Shown here piece after piece: positions 3,693-20,672 of a DNA stretch of 42,860 nt. The DNA is taken from positions 1 through 42,860 of the IMG/VR virus record IMGVR_UViG_3300028794_000203; one strand, 5' to 3'. The stretch comes from a virus. A program made the position numbers and the translations under genes. The notes under the pieces are model-generated. The model saw only the letters and a list, made by a program, of their open reading frames with translations, was not told where the DNA came from and searched no databases. The stretch's first letter is position 1; each line of letters opens with the position of its first letter.

Positions 3693-6224
3693 TTAAAATG
3701 GTAAATCGTTTTGTTCGCCCTGCAATGCTGCCTGCGGTTTTACTTCTGGAATAAACTGCGCCAATTCCGGATCCACAACAATGTTTGCTATCTCATCTTT
3801 GGTTAAAAACATTTCCCGGCGGAACACATATGGCCGGCCGTTGTCCTTCACCCATACCAATACTTTTTCTGTGCGACCCTCAGTCATCTTCTTTTCATAG
3901 CGTGGGAAGCTGTGCCGGTTGGGTACATACTTTTTTTTAATCTGTGCCATATCGGCTGTTGTCATTTCGGGATGGGCCATTAAATACTGCTGGGTGGCCA
4001 GCTCCATGGTGTCATAGTTTCTACCTTCAAACTCAAATACATGAAACAGGTCTACCCGCATGATATCTTTTAGCACGTCTTCCAGGTAGTTTTTTTCATA
4101 CTTAAAGCGGAAAATATCCTCCTGGATAACCCCCAGTGTCATTTTAATTTCAGGGGCGCCAATCTCCGTAAACAGGCTGTGCATGTGTTGCCGCAATTCC
4201 TTCACTACCACCGGCATGCTGTGTTGAATAACCTTCTTAAGCGCTTCCGTCTTAAGCAGGCTGGGGTGGAACCACATACGGTTTAAACTCTCTGTAAGCA
4301 GCTTGCGGCGGTTCAGGAAACTAATAAAAGCTGGTATTTCATCTTTCATCAGCGAAAGCAGATCGGTAATTTCATCTTTAAACTGTGGCACCTTAATAAT
4401 CCAGTATCTGATATCATCTTCTGACAGATAAATAAAATTGCCCTCGTTATTGGTGCAGAAAATAAATTTTATAAAACACTCCAACTCCACATGATCCTTT
4501 CCCTTGCTGTTCATCATTATTTTATCTGCAGTGCTGAGGCTCTTTACTTTCTCTACAACAATCTGCTTATCAATTTTGGCCTCATCGCATATTACGACCA
4601 GCTTGGTTGCCCAGTGCCGGTTAAAGTCACCAGAAAGGTCCTGGTTGCCTACGATGGCCACGTTACCGGTAAAGATTAGTTTCAGCAGTTTTGCGAATGT
4701 GCTCTTACCTGTATTGTTTTCCTTGCTCACCAGGCAAAGGATCGGAAGCTTCTCCGCTGGCTTCTGTAGCAACAGCTGCATGTAATCCAGGGCCAGCTCA
4801 TAGTTCAGGTACTTTCGTTTTGTTTTGTCTTTCGGATGGGTAAATACAATTTCATTATCTCCAAAGACGTGCTTTACAAAATTGATAATGTTGGGGCAGT
4901 CGGCTTCCGTGCAGGGGGCGTCATCTTCCTCCCATTCAAATGGGCTGTACACATTAAAACAGCCATTGATTACCTGCTGGAAATTTAGATGGTCAGGTAT
5001 ATTGCAGAACGTCTTATACTTTGGAATGTGGGATACGAATTTTTTACCATAGTCTTCAATGATGGTGCTTTTCTGCCGGACGTCGAAACGTTTTTCCAGC
5101 TGGTGGTATTTGTTGGGCACCCAAACGAATTCATAATACTGGTCACCTACACGGAAATAATTCTTTGCTTCACCTGGCACCACCATCAGGCATTCATTCT
5201 TTTCCTCATTGTACTTATATGTGGTTCCGTTGAATTTAAATTCTATACCCTTCATTTCAGGCCGGCGCTCAACATGGAACGAATAAAACTCATTTACGTT
5301 CCACAGATGGAAATACTTATGAATCTTACTGGTGCCGCTCGTGATATTGAAACGTTGAAAATAAGTGCCAGGCAGTGTGCTTTTGATGTCTTTAACAATG
5401 TCAGCAACCCGGTCAGGGAAAGTTACCAGCAAATCATCCAGCCCCTTTACCATGTCCCTGGTTATACCTTTCTCCTGGTGTACAATGGCATCGGTATCTA
5501 TATGCATGAACCATTTTTCCACGTCATAATCATCCAGCAGGTTTTTAAAAGTTTCGCAGCTGCTGTAAAAATTCTTTGGCCGGCGATACAGATCTACACC
5601 ATCTTTTAAATCTTTACCGGTAATATCCAGGCAATCTCCATCGGTAAGCCATACCATTTTTTTAACGCTGCAGAAGTCCATCAGTTTTTTTATATCTGGG
5701 TGCAGGATGCCGGTATCCTTTTCTTTCATATGGGTAATGCTGCTTAATCCGACTACCGGTATACCATGATTGCAACCCTTCCAGGCTTTAAAAAATCCTT
5801 CAACCAGGTACAGCGTGTCTATGGCTTGTTTTTTTTCAAATTGCTCAATTAGCCATGGATGAAAAAAAGGGTATGTGCCCTGACCTTTTGGAATATTGTA
5901 CTTCTGTACGCTGCCATCCTTCCTGACAACAGGTTTTTCCAGCCGGGTGATGGAATAGCTATCGCTCCACCTTTTGCCTTCCTGTTTGTAGATGATCTGG
6001 TTGCGGTCTAAAGTGTATACCAGAATATCTATGCCCAGGCCTTTGGGGTTTTCCCGGAAAATGGGCACGGGATTTAATACCGTTTCATTCGATTTAACCC
6101 CGTCTTTTTCTACTACGCCTGATTGTTTAACTTCTATAATATTGTTGGCAGCCGTTACGCCCAGTTGCTGCATGCGGGTTTCAAAATAGCTTTCCGCATT
6201 ATAGGTAGAGTCAGTATGAGCCAT
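3693..6224 (-). CDS. bifunctional primase / SF3 helicase
   Basis: 843-aa replication protein. The N-terminal third has a Toprim-like primase region (TLYLVEGFFKAWKGCNHG near 135, then KKMVWLTDGDCLD near 188). The C-terminal half is a superfamily 3 (D5-like) helicase, with Walker A SKENNTGKSTFAKL near 498 and Walker B LVVICDEA near 542. It goes on through a FIFCTNN sensor-type motif (motif C) and a YWIIKVPQF segment. It would prime and unwind phage DNA. It starts at ATG 6222-6224 and is followed downstream by the iteron cluster, which supports a joint replication module. No separate DNA polymerase is seen, so the phage probably uses the host one. Confidence 0.85.
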   Translation of the reverse strand: MAHTDSTYNAESYFETRMQQLGVTAANNIIEVKQSGVVEKDGVKSNETVLNPVPIFRENPKGLGIDILVYTLDRNQIIYKQEGKRWSDSYSITRLEKPVVRKDGSVQKYNIPKGQGTYPFFHPWLIEQFEKKQAIDTLYLVEGFFKAWKGCNHGIPVVGLSSITHMKEKDTGILHPDIKKLMDFCSVKKMVWLTDGDCLDITGKDLKDGVDLYRRPKNFYSSCETFKNLLDDYDVEKWFMHIDTDAIVHQEKGITRDMVKGLDDLLVTFPDRVADIVKDIKSTLPGTYFQRFNITSGTSKIHKYFHLWNVNEFYSFHVERRPEMKGIEFKFNGTTYKYNEEKNECLMVVPGEAKNYFRVGDQYYEFVWVPNKYHQLEKRFDVRQKSTIIEDYGKKFVSHIPKYKTFCNIPDHLNFQQVINGCFNVYSPFEWEEDDAPCTEADCPNIINFVKHVFGDNEIVFTHPKDKTKRKYLNYELALDYMQLLLQKPAEKLPILCLVSKENNTGKSTFAKLLKLIFTGNVAIVGNQDLSGDFNRHWATKLVVICDEAKIDKQIVVEKVKSLSTADKIMMNSKGKDHVELECFIKFIFCTNNEGNFIYLSEDDIRYWIIKVPQFKDEITDLLSLMKDEIPAFISFLNRRKLLTESLNRMWFHPSLLKTEALKKVIQHSMPVVVKELRQHMHSLFTEIGAPEIKMTLGVIQEDIFRFKYEKNYLEDVLKDIMRVDLFHVFEFEGRNYDTMELATQQYLMAHPEMTTADMAQIKKKYVPNRHSFPRYEKKMTEGRTEKVLVWVKDNGRPYVFRREMFLTKDEIANIVVDPELAQFIPEVKPQAALQGEQNDLPF

Positions 6225-6963: not shown

Positions 6964-7190
6964 CAGTGGTATCGCTTCAATAAAAAGAAACTGATTACAC
7001 GGCCAGTCCAAGCCAGGCGTTTGTGTGCTTGTTTCAGGCGTGGCTCTTTATTGTAATATTTTTCTGCCCTTCTGAGGTTATTTACTGCATCACTGAAAGC
7101 GTGCAGAGATGCCAGCAAGGCAACAAAGCAAAACACGACAATGATGGCTACGAAGTTTTGGAGTAGGGGATGGTGGTTAAGAAAATTCAT
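6963..7190 (-). CDS. small membrane protein
   Basis: 75 aa from ATG 7188-7190; a longer frame opens at 7253, but the chosen start places the gene in a short overlap with the upstream gene. After MNFLNHHPLLQN there is one transmembrane helix (FVAIIVVFCFVALLASLHAF). A basic cytoplasmic tail follows (NNLRRAEKYYNKEPRLKQAHKR). It overlaps genes on both sides and so belongs to a tightly packed early operon directly downstream of the DGR reverse transcriptase. Function unknown. Confidence 0.5.
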   Translation of the reverse strand: MNFLNHHPLLQNFVAIIVVFCFVALLASLHAFSDAVNNLRRAEKYYNKEPRLKQAHKRLAWTGRVISFFLLKRYH

Positions 7191-7479
7191 AATGCTTATT
7201 AATTTTAACAATCGTTGTTTTAAATGGAAAATCTTCTTTGTTGATACTTTCAATGGTTTCCATCAGGTAAGAGGACCCGCTAAACACAACACGCAGTTCC
7301 CCTTTATATTTTAACTGCAGTGTAAGGCACTTGCCGGATCCTTTTTCAGGATATTTTGATGCGCCTATTTTATAATCAAGAACTTCTATTTCGGTATTGG
7401 TAATGCGGTCAATGCTGATGCTATCACCCTGAAAGGATTTTATTTGTACGCTTATACCCAGTTCGCTGAATTTTTTCAT
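7177..7479 (-). CDS. conserved small phage protein downstream of DGR RT
   Basis: 100 aa with ATG at 7477-7479, overlapping the end of the reverse transcriptase gene by 56 bases in another frame. The product looks like a compact beta-rich fold. It has SVQIKSFQGDSISIDRITN, EIEVLDYKIGASKYPEKGSGKC, VVFSGSSYLMETIE and FPFKTTIVKINKHYEF. I recall similar short proteins from Bacteroidota phages, but no assigned function. An OB-type single-strand-binding fold is possible from the pattern but unproven. The overlap suggests coupling to RT translation. Confidence 0.65.
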   Translation of the reverse strand: MKKFSELGISVQIKSFQGDSISIDRITNTEIEVLDYKIGASKYPEKGSGKCLTLQLKYKGELRVVFSGSSYLMETIESINKEDFPFKTTIVKINKHYEFS

Positions 7480-8500
7480 TGGAGGTTAGTTTGTTTAGGA
7501 GGTTAGAACTTTGGCAATGCTTTGCCCATCCATAGTAGGAGGCGAACGTGGCAGGCCTAGCCCCGGCCGCTACTTTGCGGGCAAAGTTTTTCTTGATACT
7601 TTTTCTCAGCAGGGTATGGGTATGGTAAAACCGGTAGCCTACAAAATCAATGCTTCTGGCTGCCACCGGGAATACCTGGTAGTTTTGCTTTACGGTCAGT
7701 TTTAAATGCTGCTGCAGGTAGTCTGAAATATCAGCCAGCAGCTGGTGGAGGTAGGGTTTATTGCCGGATAGGATTACGATATCATCGGCATAACGGAAAT
7801 AGTATTTTACGGATTTGTTTTCTTTTATCCAGTGGTCAAAAAATGTGAGGTAAAAGTTTGCAAAGTACTGGCTGAGATAATTACCGATGGGAAGGCCCGG
7901 CGCACTGTCTATAATGCCATCCAATAACCAAAGCATGCCAGCATCTTTTATTTTCCTGCGCAGCAATTGCTTTAAAATATTGTGGTCAACGGACGGGTAA
8001 AACTTTTTGATATCCAATTTCAGGCAATACTGTGTACCGGCCTCGTCTCTGAGCGCTTTCCTGACAGCCCTGGCGGCGCCATGTATGCCCCGGTCTTTTA
8101 TGCAGCTGAAACTATCGGCAGTGAAAACAGAAACGAAAAGCGGCTCCAGGACGTTCATTGCAGCGTGGTGCACGATCCTGTCTGGGAAATAAGGGAGACA
8201 AAAAACTTCGCGCTCTTTCGGCTCATATACCTTAAACGTTTTGTATGGTGATGTTTGAAAGGTTTTATTCACCAGCATATTGTGCAGCTTCCAGATGTTG
8301 TTATCCCTGTCTTTGTCATGCATCTGCACACCATACTGGTATGCCTTGCCTTTGCGCGCTTTGGTGTCAGCCAGTTCCAGGTTGTCAATGCTGTATACCA
8401 TTTGAAAAAGATTGTTTAGCCGTTTCATGCCTTTGCTTTGAAAGCTCATTTTCCCGGTGAGGGTACCAATGAACTTTTGTTGAAGATCATTTTTTGCCAA
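7424..8500 (-). CDS. DGR reverse transcriptase
   Basis: Reverse transcriptase of the diversity-generating retroelement, up to 358 aa. Motifs in order: YCLKLDIKKFYPSVDHNIL (catalytic Asp), LPIGNYLSQYFANFYL (the I/L-G-x-x-x-S-Q box typical of DGR and related RTs), YFRYADDIVILSG (the YADD catalytic pair) and FVGYRFYHTHTLL. It would copy TR RNA into adenine-mutated cDNA. The reading frame opens with TTG at 8498-8500; ATG starts at 8447-8449 (MSFQSKGMKRL) or 8426-8428 (MKRLNNLFQM) are more usual for this family, so the true start is uncertain. It lies 31 bases beyond the TR and overlaps the next gene. No Avd accessory protein is recognisable. Confidence 0.93.
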   Translation of the reverse strand: MAKNDLQQKFIGTLTGKMSFQSKGMKRLNNLFQMVYSIDNLELADTKARKGKAYQYGVQMHDKDRDNNIWKLHNMLVNKTFQTSPYKTFKVYEPKEREVFCLPYFPDRIVHHAAMNVLEPLFVSVFTADSFSCIKDRGIHGAARAVRKALRDEAGTQYCLKLDIKKFYPSVDHNILKQLLRRKIKDAGMLWLLDGIIDSAPGLPIGNYLSQYFANFYLTFFDHWIKENKSVKYYFRYADDIVILSGNKPYLHQLLADISDYLQQHLKLTVKQNYQVFPVAARSIDFVGYRFYHTHTLLRKSIKKNFARKVAAGARPATFASYYGWAKHCQSSNLLNKLTSNEKIQRTGYKRTNKILSG

Positions 8501-8531
8501 GGGGCAAGGTCTGTGCTGATAAAAATTTGCA

Positions 8532-8601
8532 ATTGCTGGGAACTGCCGGTCGTGTTCGTATTCGTGTAATCGTAGTTCGTGTCGTTGAACTGGAAGCTGG
8601 G
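8532..8601 (-). repeat. DGR template repeat (TR)
   Basis: 70-bp non-coding template between the last target gene and the RT. Read on the minus strand it matches the three VRs at 8727-8796, 9095-9164 and 9564-9633 (offsets +195, +563 and +1032) without gaps. Mismatches number 16, 17 and 19, and all 52 are at TR adenines; there is no mismatch at C, G or T. It contains 23 adenines, many in AAC/AAT/ACG-type codons. In the VR frame it would read PSFQFNDTNYDYTNTNTTGS. A perfect palindrome CTAACCCGGGTTAG (8605-8618) sits next to its 5' end. This is a textbook TR by the adenine rule. Confidence 0.95.
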
Positions 8602-8604
8602 AAC

Positions 8605-8618
8605 CTAACCCGGGTTAG
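8605..8618. repeat. 14-bp perfect palindrome beside the TR
   Basis: CTAACCCGGGTTAG lies three bases upstream (in transcription direction) of the TR and between it and the stop of the nearest target gene. It could form a hairpin in the TR RNA. Structured RNA around the TR is needed in well-studied DGRs, so a role is plausible, but it is inferred. Confidence 0.5.
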
Positions 8619-8643
8619 CTCAGACAGCACACCACCCACTAAT

Positions 8644-9012
8644 TTATTTTGGCACCACCATCATGTCTTTATACAAATTGATAAAGGTTTTTCCTGCATA
8701 GGTGGCCAGCTCTCTGGTCTTAAAGCAAAGCCGGGAACCGCCGGCCGAGTTCGCAGCCGCGTAAACGTAGTTCGAGTCGAGGAACCGGAAGCCGGGTTTA
8801 TTCATATAGAACCACGGGAAATACTTGTATTCATCGTAATCATCCCAGTTGGGCGTCCAGCCTTCATTCAATGCTTCAGCAATAATTATCATCTGCATAT
8901 GTGCGATCATTGCTGCATGATGTTTTGTCGGGAATTTTGATACATCCGGGATGATCTTCTTTGGATCGTGGCCTAATTTTTTGCAGGCCTGGGCAAATGT
9001 TTTTATTGGCAT
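8644..9012 (-). CDS. DGR target protein 1 (variable protein)
   Basis: 122 aa, ATG at 9010-9012. It shares with the next two genes the core ALNEGW-TPNW, FPWFYMNKPGFRF, the variable segment (LDSNYVYAAANSAG), then GGSRLCFKTRELATYAG and a helical C-terminus. The GFR...GGSR layout resembles the C-type-lectin-like ligand-binding domains diversified by DGRs. The VR occupies 8727-8796, about 27 codons before the stop. Against the TR-encoded residues, variable positions include N to L, D to V, and T or N to A. There is no signal peptide or lipobox, so the protein is either cytoplasmic or built into virions. Confidence 0.88.
   Translation of the reverse strand: MPIKTFAQACKKLGHDPKKIIPDVSKFPTKHHAAMIAHMQMIIIAEALNEGWTPNWDDYDEYKYFPWFYMNKPGFRFLDSNYVYAAANSAGGSRLCFKTRELATYAGKTFINLYKDMMVVPK
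8727..8796 (-). repeat. DGR variable repeat VR1
   Basis: Matches the TR over 70 bp with 16 substitutions, all at TR adenines (7 of 23 adenines retained). It lies inside target gene 1. Confidence 0.93.
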
Positions 9013-9020
9013 GATGTATT

Positions 9021-9482
9021 TTATTTTAAGAATTCTTCATAAATATCCATGAACTGTTTGCCGGCATATTCTGCGAGCTCCCTGCTTTTAAAGCAAAGCC
9101 GGGAACCGCCGGCCGAGTACGAATGCGAGTAATCGTAGACCGAGTCGGCGAACCGGAAGCCGGGTTTGTTCATATAGAACCAGGGATACCATTTAGCTTG
9201 ATTGCCATCATTCCAATCTGGTTTCCATCCTTCGTTCAATGCGCGGGCAATGACCTTTAATTTTTGATAGGCGTTATCATCTGTGCTCCCGGCAGTAAAA
9301 GCCTGGTAGTATGGATCCATATCAGTTTCAGTGCAGGCGTCGAAAAATGTTTTTACCCGGTCTGTTACTTTACTGGAAAAGAAATTTTCGCCAAAGGTGT
9401 CTTCCAACATTGTTTTGAATTCATCAGACGCGCTTTTGTAAAGACTGCGGGCTTTTGTTTCATCAATTTGAAGTGCTTGCAT
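9021..9482 (-). CDS. DGR target protein 2 (variable protein)
   Basis: 153 aa, ATG at 9480-9482. The N-terminal ~70 residues (charged, helical) differ from targets 1 and 3. The C-terminal ~80 residues share ALNEGWKPDW, KWYPWFYMNKPGFRF, the variable stretch ADSVYDYSHSYSAG and GGSRLCFKSRELAEYAGKQF. The VR is at 9095-9164. It ends in a helix (MDIYEEFLK). Shared C-terminal halves with different N-termini suggest paralogues that diversify one binding fold while presenting it differently. It is tandem with targets 1 and 3, with gaps under 10 bases, so it is co-transcribed with the RT. Confidence 0.88.
   Translation of the reverse strand: MQALQIDETKARSLYKSASDEFKTMLEDTFGENFFSSKVTDRVKTFFDACTETDMDPYYQAFTAGSTDDNAYQKLKVIARALNEGWKPDWNDGNQAKWYPWFYMNKPGFRFADSVYDYSHSYSAGGSRLCFKSRELAEYAGKQFMDIYEEFLK
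9095..9164 (-). repeat. DGR variable repeat VR2
   Basis: Matches the TR over 70 bp with 17 substitutions, all at TR adenines. It lies inside target gene 2. Confidence 0.93.
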
Positions 9483-9489
9483 AGTAGGT

Positions 9490-9885
9490 TTATTTTAAAA
9501 GTTGCTGATATATATCAGTGAATTGTTTACCTGCATATTCAGCCAGTTCCCCTGACTTAAAGCAAAGCCGGGAACCGCCGGCCGAGTACGTACCCGCGTA
9601 AGCGCAGTACGCGCCGACGAACCGGAAGCCGGGGGGATTGTTGCGATCAACTTCCATATCAAACCATGGATACCATTTATGCTGGCTGTTATCATTCCAA
9701 TCAGGCTGCCAGCCTTCATTCAATGCCCTGATAATGACAATTAATTTGCATAGTGCATTCACAGCAAGCTCGTCAGGTGTGTTGCCGGTAAATGCAAGCA
9801 CATCCTTTTCTGGGACCTTTAGCAGGCTGCACGCATCCTGGAAGGTTTTGATGCGGTCAGTAATGAGTGTGGTTGTTTTTTTCAT
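9490..9885 (-). CDS. DGR target protein 3 (variable protein)
   Basis: 131 aa, ATG at 9883-9885. It has the shared core ALNEGWQPDW, KWYPWFDM, then an insertion EVDRNNP relative to the other two before PGFRF. The variable segment is VGAYCAYAGTYSAG, followed by GGSRLCFKSGELAEYAGKQF. The VR is at 9564-9633. The N-terminal TDRIKTFQDACSLLKV is similar to a TDRVKTFFDACTET stretch in target 2, so these two share ancestry beyond the VR domain. It is the first target after the Cro-like and 71-aa genes in the leftward operon. Confidence 0.88.
   Translation of the reverse strand: MKKTTTLITDRIKTFQDACSLLKVPEKDVLAFTGNTPDELAVNALCKLIVIIRALNEGWQPDWNDNSQHKWYPWFDMEVDRNNPPGFRFVGAYCAYAGTYSAGGSRLCFKSGELAEYAGKQFTDIYQQLLK
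9564..9633 (-). repeat. DGR variable repeat VR3
   Basis: Matches the TR over 70 bp with 19 substitutions, all at TR adenines; the most diverged of the three. It lies inside target gene 3. Confidence 0.93.
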
Positions 9886-9903: not shown

Positions 9904-10119
9904 TTACTCTGTAGGTGGCAGCACGCCGGGCACACTGTATACTGTTGCCTGCATGAATGCTTCAGTGTGTGAGCAGATAGTTAACCAGACTTTAGTGTGG
10001 ATGTCAAGGGCATTGCTGCTGTGAGGGAGTTCACGCTGTGACAGAACATTTTCAACGAAACGCAACATTTTATCAAGTTGACGCGCTTCGTTAGCTGTCA
10101 AACCCTGTTGATTATTCAT
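9904..10119 (-). CDS. hypothetical small early protein
   Basis: 71 aa, ATG at 10117-10119, all-helical by inspection (LTANEARQLDKMLRFVENVL...KVWLTICSHTEAFMQATVY) with a Pro-rich end. It lies between the Cro-like gene and DGR target 3. DGRs usually have a small helical accessory protein (Avd, about 120 aa, four-helix bundle). This protein is helical but too short and acidic to be called Avd, so its role is open. Confidence 0.55.
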   Translation of the reverse strand: MNNQQGLTANEARQLDKMLRFVENVLSQRELPHSSNALDIHTKVWLTICSHTEAFMQATVYSVPGVLPPTE

Positions 10120-10194: not shown

Positions 10195-10410
10195 CTATAC
10201 TGCTGACTTAATTCTCACCAGAATCTCATTATCCTTCAATCCAGTATACTTCCGAATTACTTCCATTGCTGCCGCCTTGGTTAAGGAATCATCATTATTA
10301 TTTATATACCTGATTATTGTTTGTTCAGTGCATTGCAGTGCTTGAGCCAGTTGGATCCGGGTTTCAGGGTTGTTGATTTGCTTGATTACTTTCTTAGATA
10401 ACTGAAACAT
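10195..10410 (-). CDS. Cro-like HTH transcription regulator
   Basis: 71 aa, ATG at 10408-10410. The helix-turn-helix is visible in TRIQLAQALQCTEQTIIRYINN, where AQALQCTEQTIIRYI is the turn and recognition helix. It is divergent from the repressor at 10546 across a 135-base operator region, the arrangement of a Cro/CI-type lysis-lysogeny switch. It is the first gene of the leftward early run that includes the DGR and replication genes. It could act as Cro or as an excision/activator protein. Confidence 0.75.
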   Translation of the reverse strand: MFQLSKKVIKQINNPETRIQLAQALQCTEQTIIRYINNNDDSLTKAAAMEVIRKYTGLKDNEILVRIKSAV

Positions 10411-13632: not shown

Positions 13633-15273
13633 TCACCTGGTACCAAAGCTGCCACCTCCCATACCGCCGCCATTCTTTATCTTCTTTTTCTTTATAACCG
13701 CATGGTTGGTCATATCAAAGCAATCACTGAAGTGCGTGGTAGTTCGCTGGTCAAGCTTAGGATAGGCAGCGCTGTCTTCATACTTCTTTTGCTTTCTGGT
13801 AACAAGAGTATTGCCCTTTTTCCGCGTTATGGCCTCAGCCCCTTTAATGCTGATATCTAAGAACACACATTTATCCAGGTTAATCCTGATGGGCATTTCC
13901 GTAGTATCCGCTTGCAGCCAAGCTTTTGTATCGTTATACTTGTCAAAGTGCTCAGGCGCCTGGCCAGTGTATATGGAAACAACATTCCAACGATTCTTTC
14001 TTAATGTGCGCAATACAATCTTGTAATACTGTACTGCATCATTTCTTTTACCTGTGGCCGTTTGGTCATAGATATAATAGATCCGTTTCTTATTATGTGT
14101 TTTGTACCTGTCACAGAACTCCTGTACTGCGTCTTCTAAGCCCTGTGGTGCTAACGTGGATAGCTCATCTATATAGTTTAAGGATTCAACTTCAGCTCCC
14201 GGCAGCCTTGATATTTGGCATATGGGCATTGGGCTTACAGAATGCTGGTAATCCAATGAAATGATAAATGGCTTATTACTATCATAATCTTTTAAATTGC
14301 GATACCCGTGCACATCAGGGTCGTAGTCAGGATAAAATCCATCTTCCGGACGAGTTGGGTCTTCATTATGGATAGCTATTTTTAGCTCATAAGGTTTTAA
14401 AATATCAACCTTATCCTTGTACCATTCTGGCCCCTGGATTACCTGTGTATCGTTGTGATCAGCTTCAATATAAAGGGTGAGATTTTTACGTAGATTATAA
14501 AGCCTGACTTCCAGCCTGTTTATTTGCGGCCGCAACTCTCGTTTCTTGTTTTTTCCCGATGCGTTGTATTCATCATTCAATACATTTAGCGCCATTTGCA
14601 GGGTCATAATGACCTGGTTTTTTACCGGGTTATTTAGTTTTCGCTTCTCTAAAATCCAGTTGATTTTATTTGGTGGTGCAAGTTTGTCTGTGGAAAAGAA
14701 TTTGGCGTATAAGAGGCTACTCATTTTCCATTTTGCGGGCATACCCTTGAATGGGCGGAAAATCGGAAAAACCTCACTCATCAAGGTTGATTCATCTAAC
14801 AATTTGGCTTCGTCAAATTTACCATTGGTTACGCTTAACGCATTTGTACTACCCAAACGTGCCAGGCTAACCAAATGATCAGTGTAACCATTGTGCCAGG
14901 TCATTAGGTTGTCATATTTCTTTGTTGCAATATTTATGAAAGGTTTTGGCCAATCATCAGGCGGTTTCACTCTTACAACAAAATGAATTCCATCAACAAA
15001 TCCGATATCGGTTAAACCTTTTACTAAGGCATTAAGCGTGTTATCATAAAGGTGCTCAAACGTTGGCCCGACAATTACCCCGCTGCCTCGCGGAAATTCA
15101 TATGCGCATTCCTCAGCAAATGGTGCCATACCAAGTGAAGTTTTAAATCCGCCACGATTTGCAGGAAAGATGATCGTAGGGGCCTTTATTAATCTAATCT
15201 GCATATGTGGCCATGGCATGGACACTTCGGTTATTTTCGACTCAACGTCAGTATTATTCGGTATCATCATCAT
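13633..15273 (-). CDS. terminase large subunit
   Basis: DNA-packaging motor, about 546 aa from the ATG at 15271-15273; two more ATGs follow directly, and an upstream frame start at 15303 would overlap the preceding gene more. An ATPase P-loop-like segment appears early (FPANRGGFKTSLG). Then come VIVGPTFEHLYDN, a Walker B-type KLLDES and a coupling region near LMSEVFPIFRPFKG. The C-terminal nuclease part includes an acidic FIISLDYQHSVSPM. It ends in a glycine-rich tail (GGGMGGGSFGTR). It starts within the tail of the small-terminase-like gene. Unusually, it is the last gene of the late region. Confidence 0.85.
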   Translation of the reverse strand: MMMIPNNTDVESKITEVSMPWPHMQIRLIKAPTIIFPANRGGFKTSLGMAPFAEECAYEFPRGSGVIVGPTFEHLYDNTLNALVKGLTDIGFVDGIHFVVRVKPPDDWPKPFINIATKKYDNLMTWHNGYTDHLVSLARLGSTNALSVTNGKFDEAKLLDESTLMSEVFPIFRPFKGMPAKWKMSSLLYAKFFSTDKLAPPNKINWILEKRKLNNPVKNQVIMTLQMALNVLNDEYNASGKNKKRELRPQINRLEVRLYNLRKNLTLYIEADHNDTQVIQGPEWYKDKVDILKPYELKIAIHNEDPTRPEDGFYPDYDPDVHGYRNLKDYDSNKPFIISLDYQHSVSPMPICQISRLPGAEVESLNYIDELSTLAPQGLEDAVQEFCDRYKTHNKKRIYYIYDQTATGKRNDAVQYYKIVLRTLRKNRWNVVSIYTGQAPEHFDKYNDTKAWLQADTTEMPIRINLDKCVFLDISIKGAEAITRKKGNTLVTRKQKKYEDSAAYPKLDQRTTTHFSDCFDMTNHAVIKKKKIKNGGGMGGGSFGTR

Positions 15274-15844
15274 CAGGGATTTGTTCAGCCAATGGCAAAC
15301 CATTTATAAATTTGTCTGCTAATTCCATGGCAGTATTTATATCCATTAACAAAGGCTGATTATTTACACCAACAAGGTTGTATTGAATTACCGGCTTTGG
15401 AACATCTGGGGTTTGCTGATCTTCAGGAAGGCTGTTAATTTGATAGGTATAGGCTTCATGAATGCGGGCCAATGCTGCGACATCTTTATGGCTTAGCGTT
15501 TCATATTTCCCGGTTTCTGCATCAATTTTGAAAAACCCTTCCCTTATTCTTTTGAGATCATCCTGTAATTGCTCGATGTGCAAATGGGCCAGGTAACGTT
15601 TATTTAATTTTCTACTGCGAGCAAATACCTCTTGCGCGGCCGTGATATCATTGTTAGTAGTGAATTTGCTGACGTTAAATTTTAAGGTGTGCTTTAGCAA
15701 TATATCTGTGTAAGAAAGTGCCTGCCGATGAAGTAGGTCAATATGTTCCCACCTAGCTAAAATTGTCTCTTCCTCTGCGGTCAGGGTGATATCAGATTTA
15801 GTAAGGTATCTGATGATTCGTGTTTTGGCGTCAATCTTACTCAT
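15254..15844 (-). CDS. putative terminase small subunit
   Basis: 196 aa from the ATG at 15842-15844, inside the end of the upstream gene. It is helical and charged, with an N-terminal region rich in ILTAEEETILARWEHIDLLH and a middle LQDDLKRIREGFFKI. Its place immediately before the large terminase, overlapping it by about 20 bases, is the main argument. No HTH is obvious, so the call rests on context. It ends in an acidic PDDDDTE tail. Confidence 0.5.
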   Translation of the reverse strand: MSKIDAKTRIIRYLTKSDITLTAEEETILARWEHIDLLHRQALSYTDILLKHTLKFNVSKFTTNNDITAAQEVFARSRKLNKRYLAHLHIEQLQDDLKRIREGFFKIDAETGKYETLSHKDVAALARIHEAYTYQINSLPEDQQTPDVPKPVIQYNLVGVNNQPLLMDINTAMELADKFINGLPLAEQIPDDDDTE

Positions 15845-16541
15845 CGATTTTAAGTAATTTTTTGTAATGTGCAACCATTGCAACGCTTTTCTTTAGCAAA
15901 TCAGCCCAATTAGGAACATTTTTATTGTTCGGATTGTCGGAGATTTTTTTTGTATATCTGCGAACATAGCGTTTGTGTTTTTCAAGCTCCACCATCCATT
16001 TTACAGGATCCACTACAGGCATTTCTTCTTTGTCCTTTGTTGCAGGCAACCGGTTGTTCTGGTAGTAATAATCCCGATCATAGTAAACAGTTAATATTTC
16101 ATCTTCCAGATCCAGAATCTGGAATGCCATTTGCCCGGCTTCCATAAGCTTGTTTCTGTCCGTTTCGGCTTGCCTGGCGATGTCGTCTATTCTGTGTTGC
16201 AGGCTTTTCATCTCACCGTATAATGGCCGCCAGCGATTATAAAGGGCAGCAATTACTGTATCTTCTATTGGCTGGGATGGCCAGCCTGATTTTAATACAT
16301 TGGTCTGAGTTACCTGGGAAGGCTGAAGATTGTCAATGTCACGTGCAACGGTGGTAATGGCTGGCTTCGCCGTATTAAGTATTTGCGTTAATGCCTCACG
16401 AAGTTTTTGCTGTTTGAAGGGAGTTTCGGCTTCAGTGGTAAGAACGCGTTTTAATGTCGCGTTATTCCCATAAAGAATATAGAGCTTAACGCCGGCGTCG
16501 TAGTTCATTGGGCTTCTAAGCCATTTTCTGATACTATCCAC
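15837..16541 (-). CDS. conserved phage protein, first gene of a late block
   Basis: About 234 aa from the GTG at 16539-16541. This start was chosen because the conserved late box lies exactly 24 bases upstream, as in the other blocks, and because the IRKWLRSPMNYDAGVKLYIL segment looks like the true N-terminus of this phage family (short repeat 'W/YL-x-SP-x-x-Y-x-x-G-x-x-L'). The rest is helical and charged with ETPFKQQKLREAL and a Tyr-rich DRDYYYQNNRLP. It comes before the terminase genes. Function unknown. Confidence 0.6.
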   Translation of the reverse strand: MDSIRKWLRSPMNYDAGVKLYILYGNNATLKRVLTTEAETPFKQQKLREALTQILNTAKPAITTVARDIDNLQPSQVTQTNVLKSGWPSQPIEDTVIAALYNRWRPLYGEMKSLQHRIDDIARQAETDRNKLMEAGQMAFQILDLEDEILTVYYDRDYYYQNNRLPATKDKEEMPVVDPVKWMVELEKHKRYVRRYTKKISDNPNNKNVPNWADLLKKSVAMVAHYKKLLKIDE

Positions 16542-16565
16542 TATGTAAAGATGTGTCCGGCCAGA

Positions 16566-16583
16566 GTGTAAGAAAAGGACAGG
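16566..16583 (-). promoter_or_regulatory. late box copy 4
   Basis: Minus strand CCTGTCCTTTTCTTACAC, 16/18 to the consensus CCTGTCCTTTNCCTGCAC. It is followed by 16 bases, then TTTACATA, then the GTG start of the gene at 15837-16541 (24 bases in total). TTTACATAGTG is identical to copy 2. Confidence 0.7.
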
Positions 16584-16584
16584 A

Positions 16585-18312
16585 CTATAGGCGGACAAGA
16601 GTGAGCGCAACTAATCCGTTGTAAGGGAGCTGCCGCCGGCGCTTTTGTATAATGTACTCTGTATGATTTATGAGGTAAGTAGCATCCCATTTAAAGTTAA
16701 TGACCTGCTGCGGTGTAAATCGGCATAGTAATTCAATCGTTTCCTCATTCTTTAATTTAGAAAGAAAGTTTGCCCAGTATGTAGGTACCAGCCCGATATC
16801 GGTACCAGTGACAGGATCATCAAATGTGTAGTCAAAGCTTAATCCTCCCAATTTTGTTCCGTTATAAGAATAGGGGCTTTCCGAGCCAAAACCCTGGAAT
16901 AACTTTGGGGCATAATTAAACGGTTTGCACTCTTGTAATCCATAGTGAAAGCATATATAAAACAAGTCAGTAGACCCGTTTGCATCAGCAATAGAAATTT
17001 CAGGCATCAATTTTTCTGATCCGTCGTCCGGCCTGAATTCTCCCATTGGATATTTTCTCATAATTGGCACCAGGCAACTGGTAGTAATATCATCGGTTTT
17101 ATCCGGAGGAATGTAGCTAAAATCGTTATGGGTTAAAATGTGCCATTCCCAATCATTACCGAAATTAGTATGTGGCTCACAAATATAGAATGCATCTTCC
17201 CCCGCGATAAAATAAATTTCATTTTCATGACCGGCATTGGCAGGGGGCAGGGTTGAAAATGTCGCTAATGCGCCTCTATAGTCCCATTGTGTTTTATCAG
17301 GCGCATCACTGCCGCCGGCGATTAGTCCATATACCTTTTTATTTGCGGAGATTTTATTTGTAAAGAAAGGTTCAACCTGCCTGCTGATATCTATCCGGTT
17401 ACTTCCGTCAAATACATCGTTAATCCTCCTAATAGTACATTTCTTTGCTACGTAATCAAAATCATACCACCAGCCCATCCGATTTTTAAGAGCGATTAAA
17501 AATGAGCTTATTTTTATTTTAGGTACAAAATTCTTCAGGTCAAGGAAAAGTTTTCCATTTTTAAAATCCCGGCCGGGGATTATAGTTTCAGTTTGCAATA
17601 AAACGGCTCTTTTGAATTCAGGGCTGTCAAAAATAAAACCGGATACCTGCCAGCCAAAAGATTCAAAACAGGTTTTTATGACCAGGTTCAAATAGGGGAA
17701 CGGAGTATAGTACGGATCATTTCTTGAACCATATATTTGAGGCATGCCATCAGTCTGAATATTAATTGAACAAAAATTATAGGTATTGGCCCAGTCAGGC
17801 GTTTCGCCAATTTGAGTGTTGTAAACATCAAAAAGCGCATATTTAAAAGTTGCGCTGTTGCCATTTCTTATAATATTATTTGCGTAAGCGTGCAGACCAA
17901 TAAGAGTAGCATCAATCTCTTCAGCGCCGCCGTAGTCGCAATCGGCAAGTGTTTTATTTTCTACATCTTTAAAAAAGTGCGAGGTTCCTTTTAAAAAATA
18001 CAGACTGACATAATCGGCCACGCTACCGTTTATGTTGGCGTTCACCTGTTCGTTTTTTAGAATGCCCGAAGCGTATTCTGAACCATCTGTAACTATTACT
18101 TTATCATAGGTATTAATCTTGCCACGGGTTTGTAAACGGTGCACGTGCTGCAATGCTTTTTCATTTCCTTTTACCGGAACTTGAATAGGATAACTAAAAT
18201 CGCCCTGCAATGCATCATTTAACTGCAAAAAGGGGTTGGTTTCTTCGATATCAAGCGCGGCATTTGCTGGTAATTTTAAACCTCTTCCCTCTATTTGTAT
18301 ACTCAGCGTCAT
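16585..18312 (-). CDS. distal tail / baseplate-hub-like protein
   Basis: 575 aa, ATG at 18310-18312. It starts MTLSIQIEGRGLKLPANAAL, with EETNPFLQLNDALQGDFSYP resembling the beginnings of Bacteroidota phage tail-tip proteins. It is beta-rich, with aromatic segments (NRMGWWYDFDYVAK, EWHILTHNDFSYIPP). It ends in QKRRRQLPYNGLVAL. It directly follows the 620-aa tail-associated gene. Together the two probably form the tail tip downstream of the tape measure, but I cannot see a hallmark motif, so the role is positional. Confidence 0.5.
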   Translation of the reverse strand: MTLSIQIEGRGLKLPANAALDIEETNPFLQLNDALQGDFSYPIQVPVKGNEKALQHVHRLQTRGKINTYDKVIVTDGSEYASGILKNEQVNANINGSVADYVSLYFLKGTSHFFKDVENKTLADCDYGGAEEIDATLIGLHAYANNIIRNGNSATFKYALFDVYNTQIGETPDWANTYNFCSINIQTDGMPQIYGSRNDPYYTPFPYLNLVIKTCFESFGWQVSGFIFDSPEFKRAVLLQTETIIPGRDFKNGKLFLDLKNFVPKIKISSFLIALKNRMGWWYDFDYVAKKCTIRRINDVFDGSNRIDISRQVEPFFTNKISANKKVYGLIAGGSDAPDKTQWDYRGALATFSTLPPANAGHENEIYFIAGEDAFYICEPHTNFGNDWEWHILTHNDFSYIPPDKTDDITTSCLVPIMRKYPMGEFRPDDGSEKLMPEISIADANGSTDLFYICFHYGLQECKPFNYAPKLFQGFGSESPYSYNGTKLGGLSFDYTFDDPVTGTDIGLVPTYWANFLSKLKNEETIELLCRFTPQQVINFKWDATYLINHTEYIIQKRRRQLPYNGLVALTLVRL

Positions 18313-20163
18313 TTATCTTAATGTTAAATTGAAGCCGTTAACAATATTCACTGCATTGAACTGCATCACATCGGGGCCTGCAGATAGCCCGTAATAACCA
18401 ACGCCGTTGCTTTCTAATAAGGTCAATGAGCCCAATGTATTGGCCGGGGTTTGGATAATTAATGTGGCGCCTGCAGTATCTGCGGTTGCTCCTGTCGTAT
18501 AACCGCCATCTGGTATGCTGCCACTGCCTACCATAATTCCATTGATGCGCAGATAATATATAATCAGATGGCCAGTAAAATTTGAAATCCTGCTATTGTC
18601 TACCGGCGGAATTGGATCACCAGGTAATGCCGGCGGAATTGTGTCAACGATATCTCTTTTTACTATTCCCCCCATTGAGTTGGGGCATATCGCACGGAAA
18701 GAGACTGTAACGAATTGATTAGCGGCAAGATTAAAAGATAATGGGACGGCATACGGATACACAAGGTCTTTCCAAATGTCATCAGTACTTAGCTTGTATT
18801 GGACCTTTGTAACCACCTGACCGCTTTCGCTGGCCACATCATAATTTACAGTCACCGTGCAGATCGTTCTGTCAACATTGAAGACTTTTTCAAAGGCGAG
18901 GTTTTCAATGATTGCATCACAAACATTTCTGTCTGCGTAGTCGGTGCCGAAATCCATGTTTTTGGGAGCATAGAAAAAATCGCCATCGGCAGCCAGGCTA
19001 AATTCAATCGGCAGGCTCCACAGCATATCCGTTGACTTTCTTAAACCAAAATCTTTGATGCTGAAATTTAATGGCCACCAGCGTTTGTTTTTTACCTGAT
19101 AAATCTCCCTATGTAAATACAAATCTCTTAACCTATCCTGCTCTTCTTTGTTTAAGTGCCCCACATCACCGGTATACAGCATTGATTCTTGCGATGGCAG
19201 TTGATATAAGGATGCTGAAATTTTATTTCCATCTTCAAAATAAGGCTTTCTTATGCTACCTGTTTGTTGCTGCTGATAACCGGTTTTGCTTTCAATTACA
19301 CCCCGAATTCTCAATGTATCTAAACCGCCAGTGCTGCCGCGATAAAGGAGGGCGATATCGTTATATTCCGGCCGGTTGTCTAATTCGAAATTGAATTTCT
19401 CGCTCATTTTTACCGGAGCAGCTGGATTGCTATTATCAAGCACTTCGACACTCCACATCCATATTCTTAACAGAGGGTTCAACGCAGACAAATTCAACAT
19501 GTTTGCGCCTACAGGCAGGTAGTGTACGTTGCCACGAACGACGATAAAAGGAAAATCAATTTCAGCCGTTGTGAGATTTGAATAAATGATGTGAAGCCTG
19601 TATAAATAGTTTCCGCCCGGAAGTACTTCAATATCCGGATGCTGGTACCATGCAAGGTAGATTCGCTCATCCTGGCCTGCAAGCCGGCCGTTGAACTGCC
19701 AGGTAAGAAATGGTTTCGTTGCAGGAAAATATGTTTGCCAATAGCCGTTATTGTTAAATAAGAACTCAGGCACGCCTCCTTTTACAACGTTTCTGGGGTA
19801 CTCTATCTCGCTTCCATCCCAGGCAGGGTCAATAGTGGAACTCGTTACTTCCCGCACTTCAATATAAAACTGGCCACTCTGGGTTGCGACTGGTGTTACT
19901 TGTGCGTCGTTTAATAATTGGGGAATACCGAATTCAAGTTCTGCATTTAAATGATCCTGCAGGTTGTATGAAGCAATCCCCTTATAAGGAATCAAAGGGA
20001 TAGCAGCTGATGGATTGAAAACCACTGAATCTGAGCGTTTGAACATTATGCGTAGCTCAAATGAAATACCGGTATCAGCTAAGGCGGCAGCGCTGTATAG
20101 CTGGTACCAGATTCCATTACCGCTCCAATTTATATTATATGGCCGTGCCTTTATTAGTATCAT
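18313..20163 (-). CDS. tail-associated structural protein
   Basis: 616 aa from the ATG at 20161-20163 (an upstream in-frame ATG four codons earlier is also possible). Begins MILIKARPYNINWSGNGIWY and is beta-strand rich. A middle stretch LYTGDVGHLNKEEQDRLRDL precedes a Gly/Thr-rich tail (PDGGYTTGATADTAG) of the sort seen in tail-fibre or tip proteins. It abuts the next gene by one base. It is probably part of the tail tip or baseplate. Confidence 0.5.
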   Translation of the reverse strand: MILIKARPYNINWSGNGIWYQLYSAAALADTGISFELRIMFKRSDSVVFNPSAAIPLIPYKGIASYNLQDHLNAELEFGIPQLLNDAQVTPVATQSGQFYIEVREVTSSTIDPAWDGSEIEYPRNVVKGGVPEFLFNNNGYWQTYFPATKPFLTWQFNGRLAGQDERIYLAWYQHPDIEVLPGGNYLYRLHIIYSNLTTAEIDFPFIVVRGNVHYLPVGANMLNLSALNPLLRIWMWSVEVLDNSNPAAPVKMSEKFNFELDNRPEYNDIALLYRGSTGGLDTLRIRGVIESKTGYQQQQTGSIRKPYFEDGNKISASLYQLPSQESMLYTGDVGHLNKEEQDRLRDLYLHREIYQVKNKRWWPLNFSIKDFGLRKSTDMLWSLPIEFSLAADGDFFYAPKNMDFGTDYADRNVCDAIIENLAFEKVFNVDRTICTVTVNYDVASESGQVVTKVQYKLSTDDIWKDLVYPYAVPLSFNLAANQFVTVSFRAICPNSMGGIVKRDIVDTIPPALPGDPIPPVDNSRISNFTGHLIIYYLRINGIMVGSGSIPDGGYTTGATADTAGATLIIQTPANTLGSLTLLESNGVGYYGLSAGPDVMQFNAVNIVNGFNLTLR

Positions 20164-20672
20164 GCGACATTCCATTTATTGGCGTCATATGCCGGCAGGT
20201 TAACATCCATTGGTATGGTCATCAGCCAACCGTAATGATTTTCATCCACCGGACCGTCAATCGGTTCAAAAATCATTTGTGTAGCATCCAGGTATTGCAA
20301 GGGGCCACAATCATCAGTTTCATAATCGTACTTCATTCTTTCATAAAAATCAAACATGATTTCCATAGCCTTTTGCTGCGCCGTTTCAATAACGCCATAA
20401 GGGTTGCCATTAGAGTTTTCAGCAGCCTTTAAGAACAATAGGGTTATTTCCTGGCGAAGCATATTTTGTTCAAAAGACCCTTTTACCTTGCCTGTGAAAT
20501 TGTCCAACAGAATAAAATATTTAGATGCATTGTTTCGCAGGGAGGCTATATCCTGTATGGTTTGCATGCGAATAAAAACAACGTTGTCATTATCATCATG
20601 CAATAGAGTAACATGTTCAATGCAAAGCTGCCTGAAATAGTCCTGAAGAGGTTTTATATATAATTCACTCAT
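20160..20672 (-). CDS. phage structural protein, head-tail or tail completion
   Basis: 170 aa, ATG at 20670-20672, overlapping the next gene's start. Begins MSELYIKPLQDYFRQLCIEH, then NNASKYFILLDNFTGKVKGS. The compact alpha/beta look and the slot between connector-like and tail-tip genes suggest a head-tail joining or tail-terminator role. No diagnostic motif is visible. Confidence 0.45.
   Translation of the reverse strand: MSELYIKPLQDYFRQLCIEHVTLLHDDNDNVVFIRMQTIQDIASLRNNASKYFILLDNFTGKVKGSFEQNMLRQEITLLFLKAAENSNGNPYGVIETAQQKAMEIMFDFYERMKYDYETDDCGPLQYLDATQMIFEPIDGPVDENHYGWLMTIPMDVNLPAYDANKWNVA

What the first reader, a model, noticed from the sequence alone, without database searches (positions are those of the whole stretch)
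7424..9885. Complete DGR with one TR and three tandem target genes
The TR at 8532-8601 aligns without gaps to VRs at 8727-8796, 9095-9164 and 9564-9633. Differences number 16, 17 and 19, and all 52 are at TR adenines, none at C, G or T. A reverse transcriptase with YADD and IGNYLSQ motifs is adjacent. DGRs with three targets fed by one TR are less common than single-target ones. The targets are short (122-153 aa), share only their C-terminal ~80 residues, and have different N-termini.
Basis: partly seen in the sequence, partly recalled or inferred. Interest (0 to 1): 0.85.

Follow-up and report, generated by a model that had tools for sequence, protein, structure and literature searches.

The report
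Three-target hypermutation cassette without Avd
This phage carries a real DNA-hypermutation machine that rewrites three small neighbouring genes from one template, and it belongs to a widespread family that carries an apparently undescribed helper gene in place of the usual one (Avd) and seems to diversify early phage proteins rather than tail fibres.

Summary
In detail: one 70-nt template repeat (TR), three variable repeats (VRs), 52 mismatches, all at TR adenines, beside a DGR reverse transcriptase (RT). One TR feeding several VRs is already known (28.6% of 948 DGRs have several VRs). Less expected is what surrounds it. (1) Relatives carry two anciently diverged small target paralogues, long A and short B, before TR and RT; the window's third gene is an extra A-type copy. 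(2) No Avd was found. A conserved ~100-aa basic gene (7177-7479) overlaps the RT 3' end instead. It follows the RT in 82 of 86 relatives; used alone as query, all 26 viral and all 5 Bacteroidota-genome hits lay beside a DGR RT; archaeal viruses have it too. AlphaFold suggests an OB-like barrel (weak fold matches). (3) Targets show no signal peptide, Pfam family or recognised C-type lectin fold, and sit among replication, methylation or packaging genes, not tail genes. (4) Near-identical relatives differ by 11-13 changes in one VR, all at TR-A, with none elsewhere in ~3.7 kb. Verdict: genuine DGR, new variant of a known kind. The accessory's role and the targets' intracellular action are inferred.

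The parts
9490..9885 (-). Target 3 (131 aa), an extra A-type target
   Evidence: contains VR 9564-9633; phrog_11581 E 7e-28; falls in the A (TR-distal) clade
9021..9482 (-). Target 2 (153 aa), the A-type target
   Evidence: contains VR 9095-9164; phrog_11581 E 4e-34; A clade
8644..9012 (-). Target 1 (122 aa), the B-type, TR-proximal target
   Evidence: contains VR 8727-8796; phrog_11581 E 2e-29; groups with TR-proximal copies
9564..9633 (-). VR of target 3
   Evidence: 19 differences to TR, all at TR-A
9095..9164 (-). VR of target 2
   Evidence: 17 differences to TR, all at TR-A
8727..8796 (-). VR of target 1
   Evidence: 16 differences to TR, all at TR-A
8532..8601 (-). Template repeat (TR), ending in IMH*
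   Evidence: 23 A of 70; sole template in the record; IMH*/IMH difference shared with relatives
7424..8500 (-). DGR reverse transcriptase (ORF opens with TTG; true start probably one of the ATG codons 18 or 24 codons further in)
   Evidence: PHROG 1423 1e-124, RVT_1 1e-17, YADD and IGNYLSQ; 80 relatives at 62-74% identity
7177..7479 (-).
   Evidence: phrog_19665; directly 3' of the RT in 82 of 86 RT loci, 26 of 26 IMG/VR hits, 5 of 5 hits in 395 Bacteroidota genomes; model pLDDT 88

Best explanation
This is a DGR in a Bacteroidota phage. The TR RNA is copied by the neighbouring RT with random bases opposite adenines, and the cDNA replaces the matching VR of any of three small target genes, each independently, guided by the IMH segment at the VR 3' end. 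It belongs to a family of Bacteroidota phage DGRs with a conserved pair of small targets, A (long) and B (short); here A is duplicated. In place of Avd the cassette carries a ~100-aa basic, OB-like protein whose gene overlaps the RT gene; it most likely binds the TR RNA or cDNA and works with the RT in priming or retrohoming. The targets are probably cytoplasmic early proteins that recognise a variable partner inside the host, rather than tail fibres. Shown: TR/VR/RT pattern, natural VR variation in relatives, accessory-RT linkage, A/B pair, gene context. Inferred: activity of this exact copy, the accessory's biochemical role, the targets' site of action. My confidence by part: DGR 0.97; accessory is a DGR component 0.8; intracellular targets about 0.55. 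The figure below is for the statement without the last clause.
For: A-only TR/VR pattern and RT motifs. Relatives differing only in one VR, all changes at TR-A: L064/L068 11 vs 0 of 3731 outside, L065/L066 12 vs 0 of 3764, L022/L023 13 vs 0 of 3661, with another VR unchanged each time. Accessory: 82 of 86 RT loci; 26 of 26 loci found with the accessory alone have the RT upstream; 5 of 5 in Bacteroidota genomes; also ANMV-1 and vir525. bAvd found in BPP-1 (2e-37) but in none of 36 other records. OB-like topology with weak OB-domain matches. A/B clades. Gene context and DGR-free homologues.
Against: No sister strain of this phage was found, so its own activity is unproven. No fold match below E 0.001 for the accessory or the target against solved structures. 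Four RT loci have intact surroundings but no accessory (L006 and three near-identical ones, L065-L067), and one of these (L065/L066) still shows VR variation, so the accessory is not strictly needed in every member. crAss-like relatives lack it next to the RT. Function of both protein families rests on association.
Confidence: 0.8

Rival explanations
1. The targets are ordinary receptor-binding or virion-decorating proteins, as in most phage DGRs, merely encoded away from the tail operon.
For: Characterised phage DGR targets are mostly tail proteins (PMC8144416, PMC10743442). One DGR-free homologue, in phage Versailles, is annotated 'tail protein' by profile search.
Against: Neighbours in relatives are primase, exonuclease, methyltransferase, helicase and terminase genes, with no tail family among the 25 commonest on either side. 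DGR-free homologues lie among recombination, replication, methyltransferase or hypothetical genes. The window's tail genes are 14 kb or more away and carry no VR. No profile similarity to Mtd, AdtA or the crAss LMMB target.
Confidence: 0.35
2. The 100-aa gene is a hitchhiker (for example a phage ssDNA-binding protein) that merely lies next to the RT and plays no part in mutagenic homing; such DGRs need no accessory or borrow one from the host.
For: Some related DGRs lack it: L006, L065-L067 and crAss-like phages. L065/L066 show VR variation without it. crAssphage LMMB is described as avd-less (PMC7290462).
Against: Every hit of accessory-only searches is beside a DGR RT, even where RT identity is 25-36% and the host is an archaeal virus. 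It accompanies quite different target types. Shared frame overlap with the RT gene and basic pI 8.9.
Confidence: 0.2
3. The cassette in this phage is a decayed, no longer active DGR, and the VR differences are old.
For: No strain variation is available for this copy; 24 of 52 changes are shared by all three VRs.
Against: No mismatch at any of the 47 non-A positions in three VRs; RT and accessory ORFs are intact; relatives with the same architecture show recent VR replacement.
Confidence: 0.08

Closest known systems
BPP-1 DGR (mtd-avd-TR-brt), Bordetella phage
   Same: TR/VR with adenine-only differences, related RT (33% identity), IMH/IMH* difference, target-TR-RT order
   Different: BPP-1 has Avd and lacks the 100-aa accessory; its single target is a tail protein with a 134-bp repeat; here three 122-153-aa targets with 70-nt VRs in an early region
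Avd-less lineage 3 DGRs, e.g. crAssphage LMMB (PMC7290462)
   Same: Target-TR-RT order, no avd, RT 45-54% identical to crAss-like RTs
   Different: crAss targets are single tail-collar fibre genes near tail genes; no homologue of the accessory in the ORF next to their RT. Whether the window's RT falls in published lineage 3 was not tested
ANMV-1 and vir525 archaeal-virus DGRs
   Same: The accessory homologue directly follows the RT
   Different: One target with a 98-113-nt VR; ANMV-1's AdtA resembles Mtd (PMC4372165). The ANMV-1 paper draws an Avd ORF; no bAvd match was found in that record
Multi-VR DGRs (Treponema, Stenotrophomonas, others; PMC3521204, PMC6642488) and tentaclin two-target phage DGRs (PMC10743442)
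   Same: One TR feeding several target genes
   Different: Tentaclin-type targets are 569-579 aa with C-type lectin and Ig domains; here small stand-alone targets form a conserved A/B pair

Membership tests
Diversity-generating retroelement | TR and VR that differ only or mainly at TR adenines | tested here: met
   52 of 52 differences at TR-A in three VRs
Diversity-generating retroelement | Adjacent DGR-type RT with the SQ motif | tested here: met
   PHROG 1423 1e-124, YADD, IGNYLSQ
Diversity-generating retroelement | VR inside an open reading frame near its 3' end | tested here: met
   24-27 codons before the stop in all three targets
Diversity-generating retroelement | IMH at VR 3' end, non-identical IMH* in TR | tested here: met
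   CGGTTCCCGGCTTTGC in VRs vs CAGTTCCCAGCAATTGC in TR; same manner of difference in the relatives displayed
Diversity-generating retroelement | Mutagenic homing in vivo | tested here: inconclusive
   Seen as natural variation in relatives; no sister strain for the window
BPP-1-type DGR | Avd accessory protein | tested here: not met
   PF22296 finds BPP-1 avd (2e-37) but nothing in the window's record or 35 others
BPP-1-type DGR | Hairpin just downstream of VR | tested here: not met
   Longest stems 4-5 bp in the window, about the shuffle level
C-type lectin DGR targets | C-type lectin fold around the VR | tested here: inconclusive
   No PDB match at E 0.001; model low-confidence in the VR; no profile link to Mtd, AdtA or LMMB target
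Phage tail-fibre DGR targets | Target gene lies in the tail operon | tested here: not met
   Tail genes at 24.6-41.6 kb, DGR at 7.2-9.9 kb; relatives likewise show replication, methylation or packaging neighbours. Presence in virions itself not testable

The most novel reading that the evidence does not exclude
A deep set of DGRs in Bacteroidota phages and archaeal viruses uses an OB-fold nucleic-acid-binding accessory instead of Avd, and in the Bacteroidota phages it diversifies a conserved pair of intracellular early proteins, giving these phages a hypermutable recognition system that works inside the host cell (for example in counter-defence) rather than at its surface.
Probability: 0.35. 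Interest if true: 0.85.

Novelty: new variant of a known kind. Interest (0 to 1): 0.62.

Why it matters
About a quarter of DGRs are said to lack a known accessory gene (PMC7290462), while Avd is needed in the reconstituted BPP-1 system (PMC12875486). A gene family that tracks the RT in Avd-less DGRs makes the question of how those elements home directly testable in a simple reporter assay. If the targets prove intracellular, DGRs would be shown to diversify a phage function other than host attachment.

Tried and rejected
Exact TR search for a sister strain in IMG/VR: none. Search with the accessory alignment failed for lack of a conserved stretch; the single protein worked. PF22296 and PF05635 at first rang in no control genome; PF22296 was repeated with BPP-1 as positive control, PF05635 was not. 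A conserved hairpin after the VR: not supported. Clustering of called ORFs first gave 66 of 87 loci with the accessory; the profile search raised this to 82 of 86 because alternative ORF calls had hidden some. ORFs directly 3' of the RT in cr55_1, LMMB, Perkons, Versailles, vir215, LBR48 and ARM81mr are not members; Versailles has a marginal hit (E 7e-4) one gene further on. Sequence search of solved structures gave nothing for either family. Chance as the source of the A-only pattern is rejected, and so is a fourth VR in the window. An earlier count said 7 shared positions; the computed number is 8.

Full report
Observation. The TR (8532-8601) and three VRs, read on the minus strand, align without gaps; 16, 17 and 19 differences all fall on TR adenines, and all 47 non-A positions are identical in every copy. 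Eight A positions carry the same change in all three VRs, so 13 A positions are variable between copies; even those alone would all fall on A by chance with probability 2e-8. Four of the shared changes form the IMH/IMH* difference: in the relatives displayed the TR typically ends like CAGCTCNCACCTATGC and the VR like CGGCTCNCGCCTTTGC. The rest of the 42.9-kb record holds no other VR. The statement that the N-termini differ is only partly right, since all three proteins match phrog_11581 in N-terminal parts too.

Setting. The window is the whole of an IMG/VR virus record. The cassette lies between small ORFs upstream (9904-10119, 10195-10410) and, downstream, a primase (3693-6224; PHROG primase 2.5e-21, DUF5906) and a serine integrase (1-1623). 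Portal, head protease, tape measure and tail fibre genes are at 22-42 kb. The Bacteroidota host is inferred from the cellular genomes that carry relatives.

Relatives. The RT query gave 80 loci in IMG/VR, 62-74% identical. A script scanning for A-only repeat pairs found TR and VRs in most. Two tandem targets is the rule; three occur in L014, L021, L025, L033, L051, L056, L061 and the window, with a remote extra VR in L050 and L052. Among 51 loci with tandem targets, the TR-distal gene of the last pair is the longer in 46. With VR residues cut out, a tree puts 43 TR-distal and all 8 'third' copies in one clade with only 3 TR-proximal copies (support 98/95); most TR-proximal copies lie outside it. 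So the family has two old paralogues, A and B, and the window's target 3 is an extra A. This persistence suggests that A and B have distinct, perhaps joint, roles (inference).

Activity. Three pairs of near-identical relatives differ only in one VR, by 11, 12 and 13 changes, all at TR-A, with none in about 3.7 kb outside and another VR unchanged (L064/L068, L065/L066, L022/L023). This is natural evidence of retrohoming and of independent updating of each target. The window's own activity is inferred.

Accessory gene. A 100-aa ORF (7177-7479) overlaps the RT 3' end. A profile of 59 members finds it within -67 to +36 nt of the RT match end in 82 of 86 RT loci from the first two searches (some loci are near-identical). 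Searching IMG/VR with this protein alone returned 26 loci, all with a DGR RT just upstream, including RTs only 25-36% identical. A profile search of 395 Bacteroidota genomes gave five hits, all beside a DGR RT. Homologues follow the RT in ANMV-1 and vir525. Loci L106, L107, L110, L112, L113, L115, L117, L118, ANMV-1 and vir525 have one 98-121-nt VR near the RT instead of the small-target arrangement, so the gene goes with the machinery, not with the targets. bAvd is present in BPP-1 and in none of 36 other records. In the RT tree the accessory is spread over deep branches and absent from the BPP-1/Aeromonas/Vibrio group (sampling favours carriers and several branches are long, so rates cannot be read from it). 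AlphaFold gives a small strand-rich barrel-like model with a helix between the third and fourth strands (pLDDT 88); PDB matches are weak (none below E 0.001) but rich in OB domains of RuvB-like proteins, HIN domains and RPA. Median pI is 8.9. No Pfam family matches. Papers searched name Avd, HRDC and MSL as accessories (PMC10053308) and lineage 3 as avd-less (PMC7290462); none found describes this gene, though subscription papers are not in the library.

Counter-evidence. L006 and the near-identical L065-L067 lack the accessory, and L065/L066 nevertheless differ in a VR. So it may be dispensable or replaced in some members.

Targets. None has a convincing Pfam match, a hydrophobic leader or a significant solved fold; viral structure hits are uncharacterised phage proteins. 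The model is helical with a short hairpin at the VR, which is low-confidence, so a C-type lectin fold is neither shown nor excluded. Neighbours in relatives are DNA primases, exonucleases, HNH nucleases and small terminase upstream, and methyltransferases, large terminase and helicases downstream; no tail family appears among the 25 commonest on either side. Homologues in Bacteroides phages Versailles and BI-TP1, Dulem virus 41 and cr60_1 lie beside recombination, replication, methyltransferase or hypothetical genes. An intracellular early role is therefore favoured over tail fibre, but on context only.

Verdict. A genuine DGR; three targets from one TR is a known arrangement (PMC3521204, PMC6642488). 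The new elements are the RT-linked accessory family in Avd-less DGRs and the conserved A/B pair of small, early-region targets. New variant of a known kind.

Noticed in passing
L083 (SAAO01000015.1), TR at 8914-8918, VRs at 8317 and 8730: A TR and two VRs with 21 and 16 A-only differences but no RT match in the 16-kb locus: a cassette that may be served in trans or has lost its RT.
   Followed up: no
L006 after 7030; L065-L067 after the RT: These RT loci lack the accessory and instead have a roughly 130-aa ORF with a Pro/Ala/Glu-rich linker directly after the RT; it could be a substitute, and L065/L066 show VR variation without the usual gene.
   Followed up: partly
L050 VR 404-484; L052 VR 606-694; L090 VR 8215; L091 VR 4599: A further A-only VR lies 3-5 kb upstream of the TR, in its own small target ORF where checked (L050, L052): remote third targets of the same family.
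   Followed up: no
L021, L030, L044, L051 and relatives: In some relatives the cassette sits between the small terminase and the large terminase genes.
   Followed up: no
window 13633-20175 (-): A run of large ORFs (556, 209, 257, 575 and 620 aa) at the end of the structural operon has no PHROG match at E 0.01.
   Followed up: no
L065-L067 (195-aa ORF near 12 kb in L065), L087, L088: Target-family homologues without a VR occur in the same phages among replication genes, for example after a DNA polymerase in L065-L067.
   Followed up: partly
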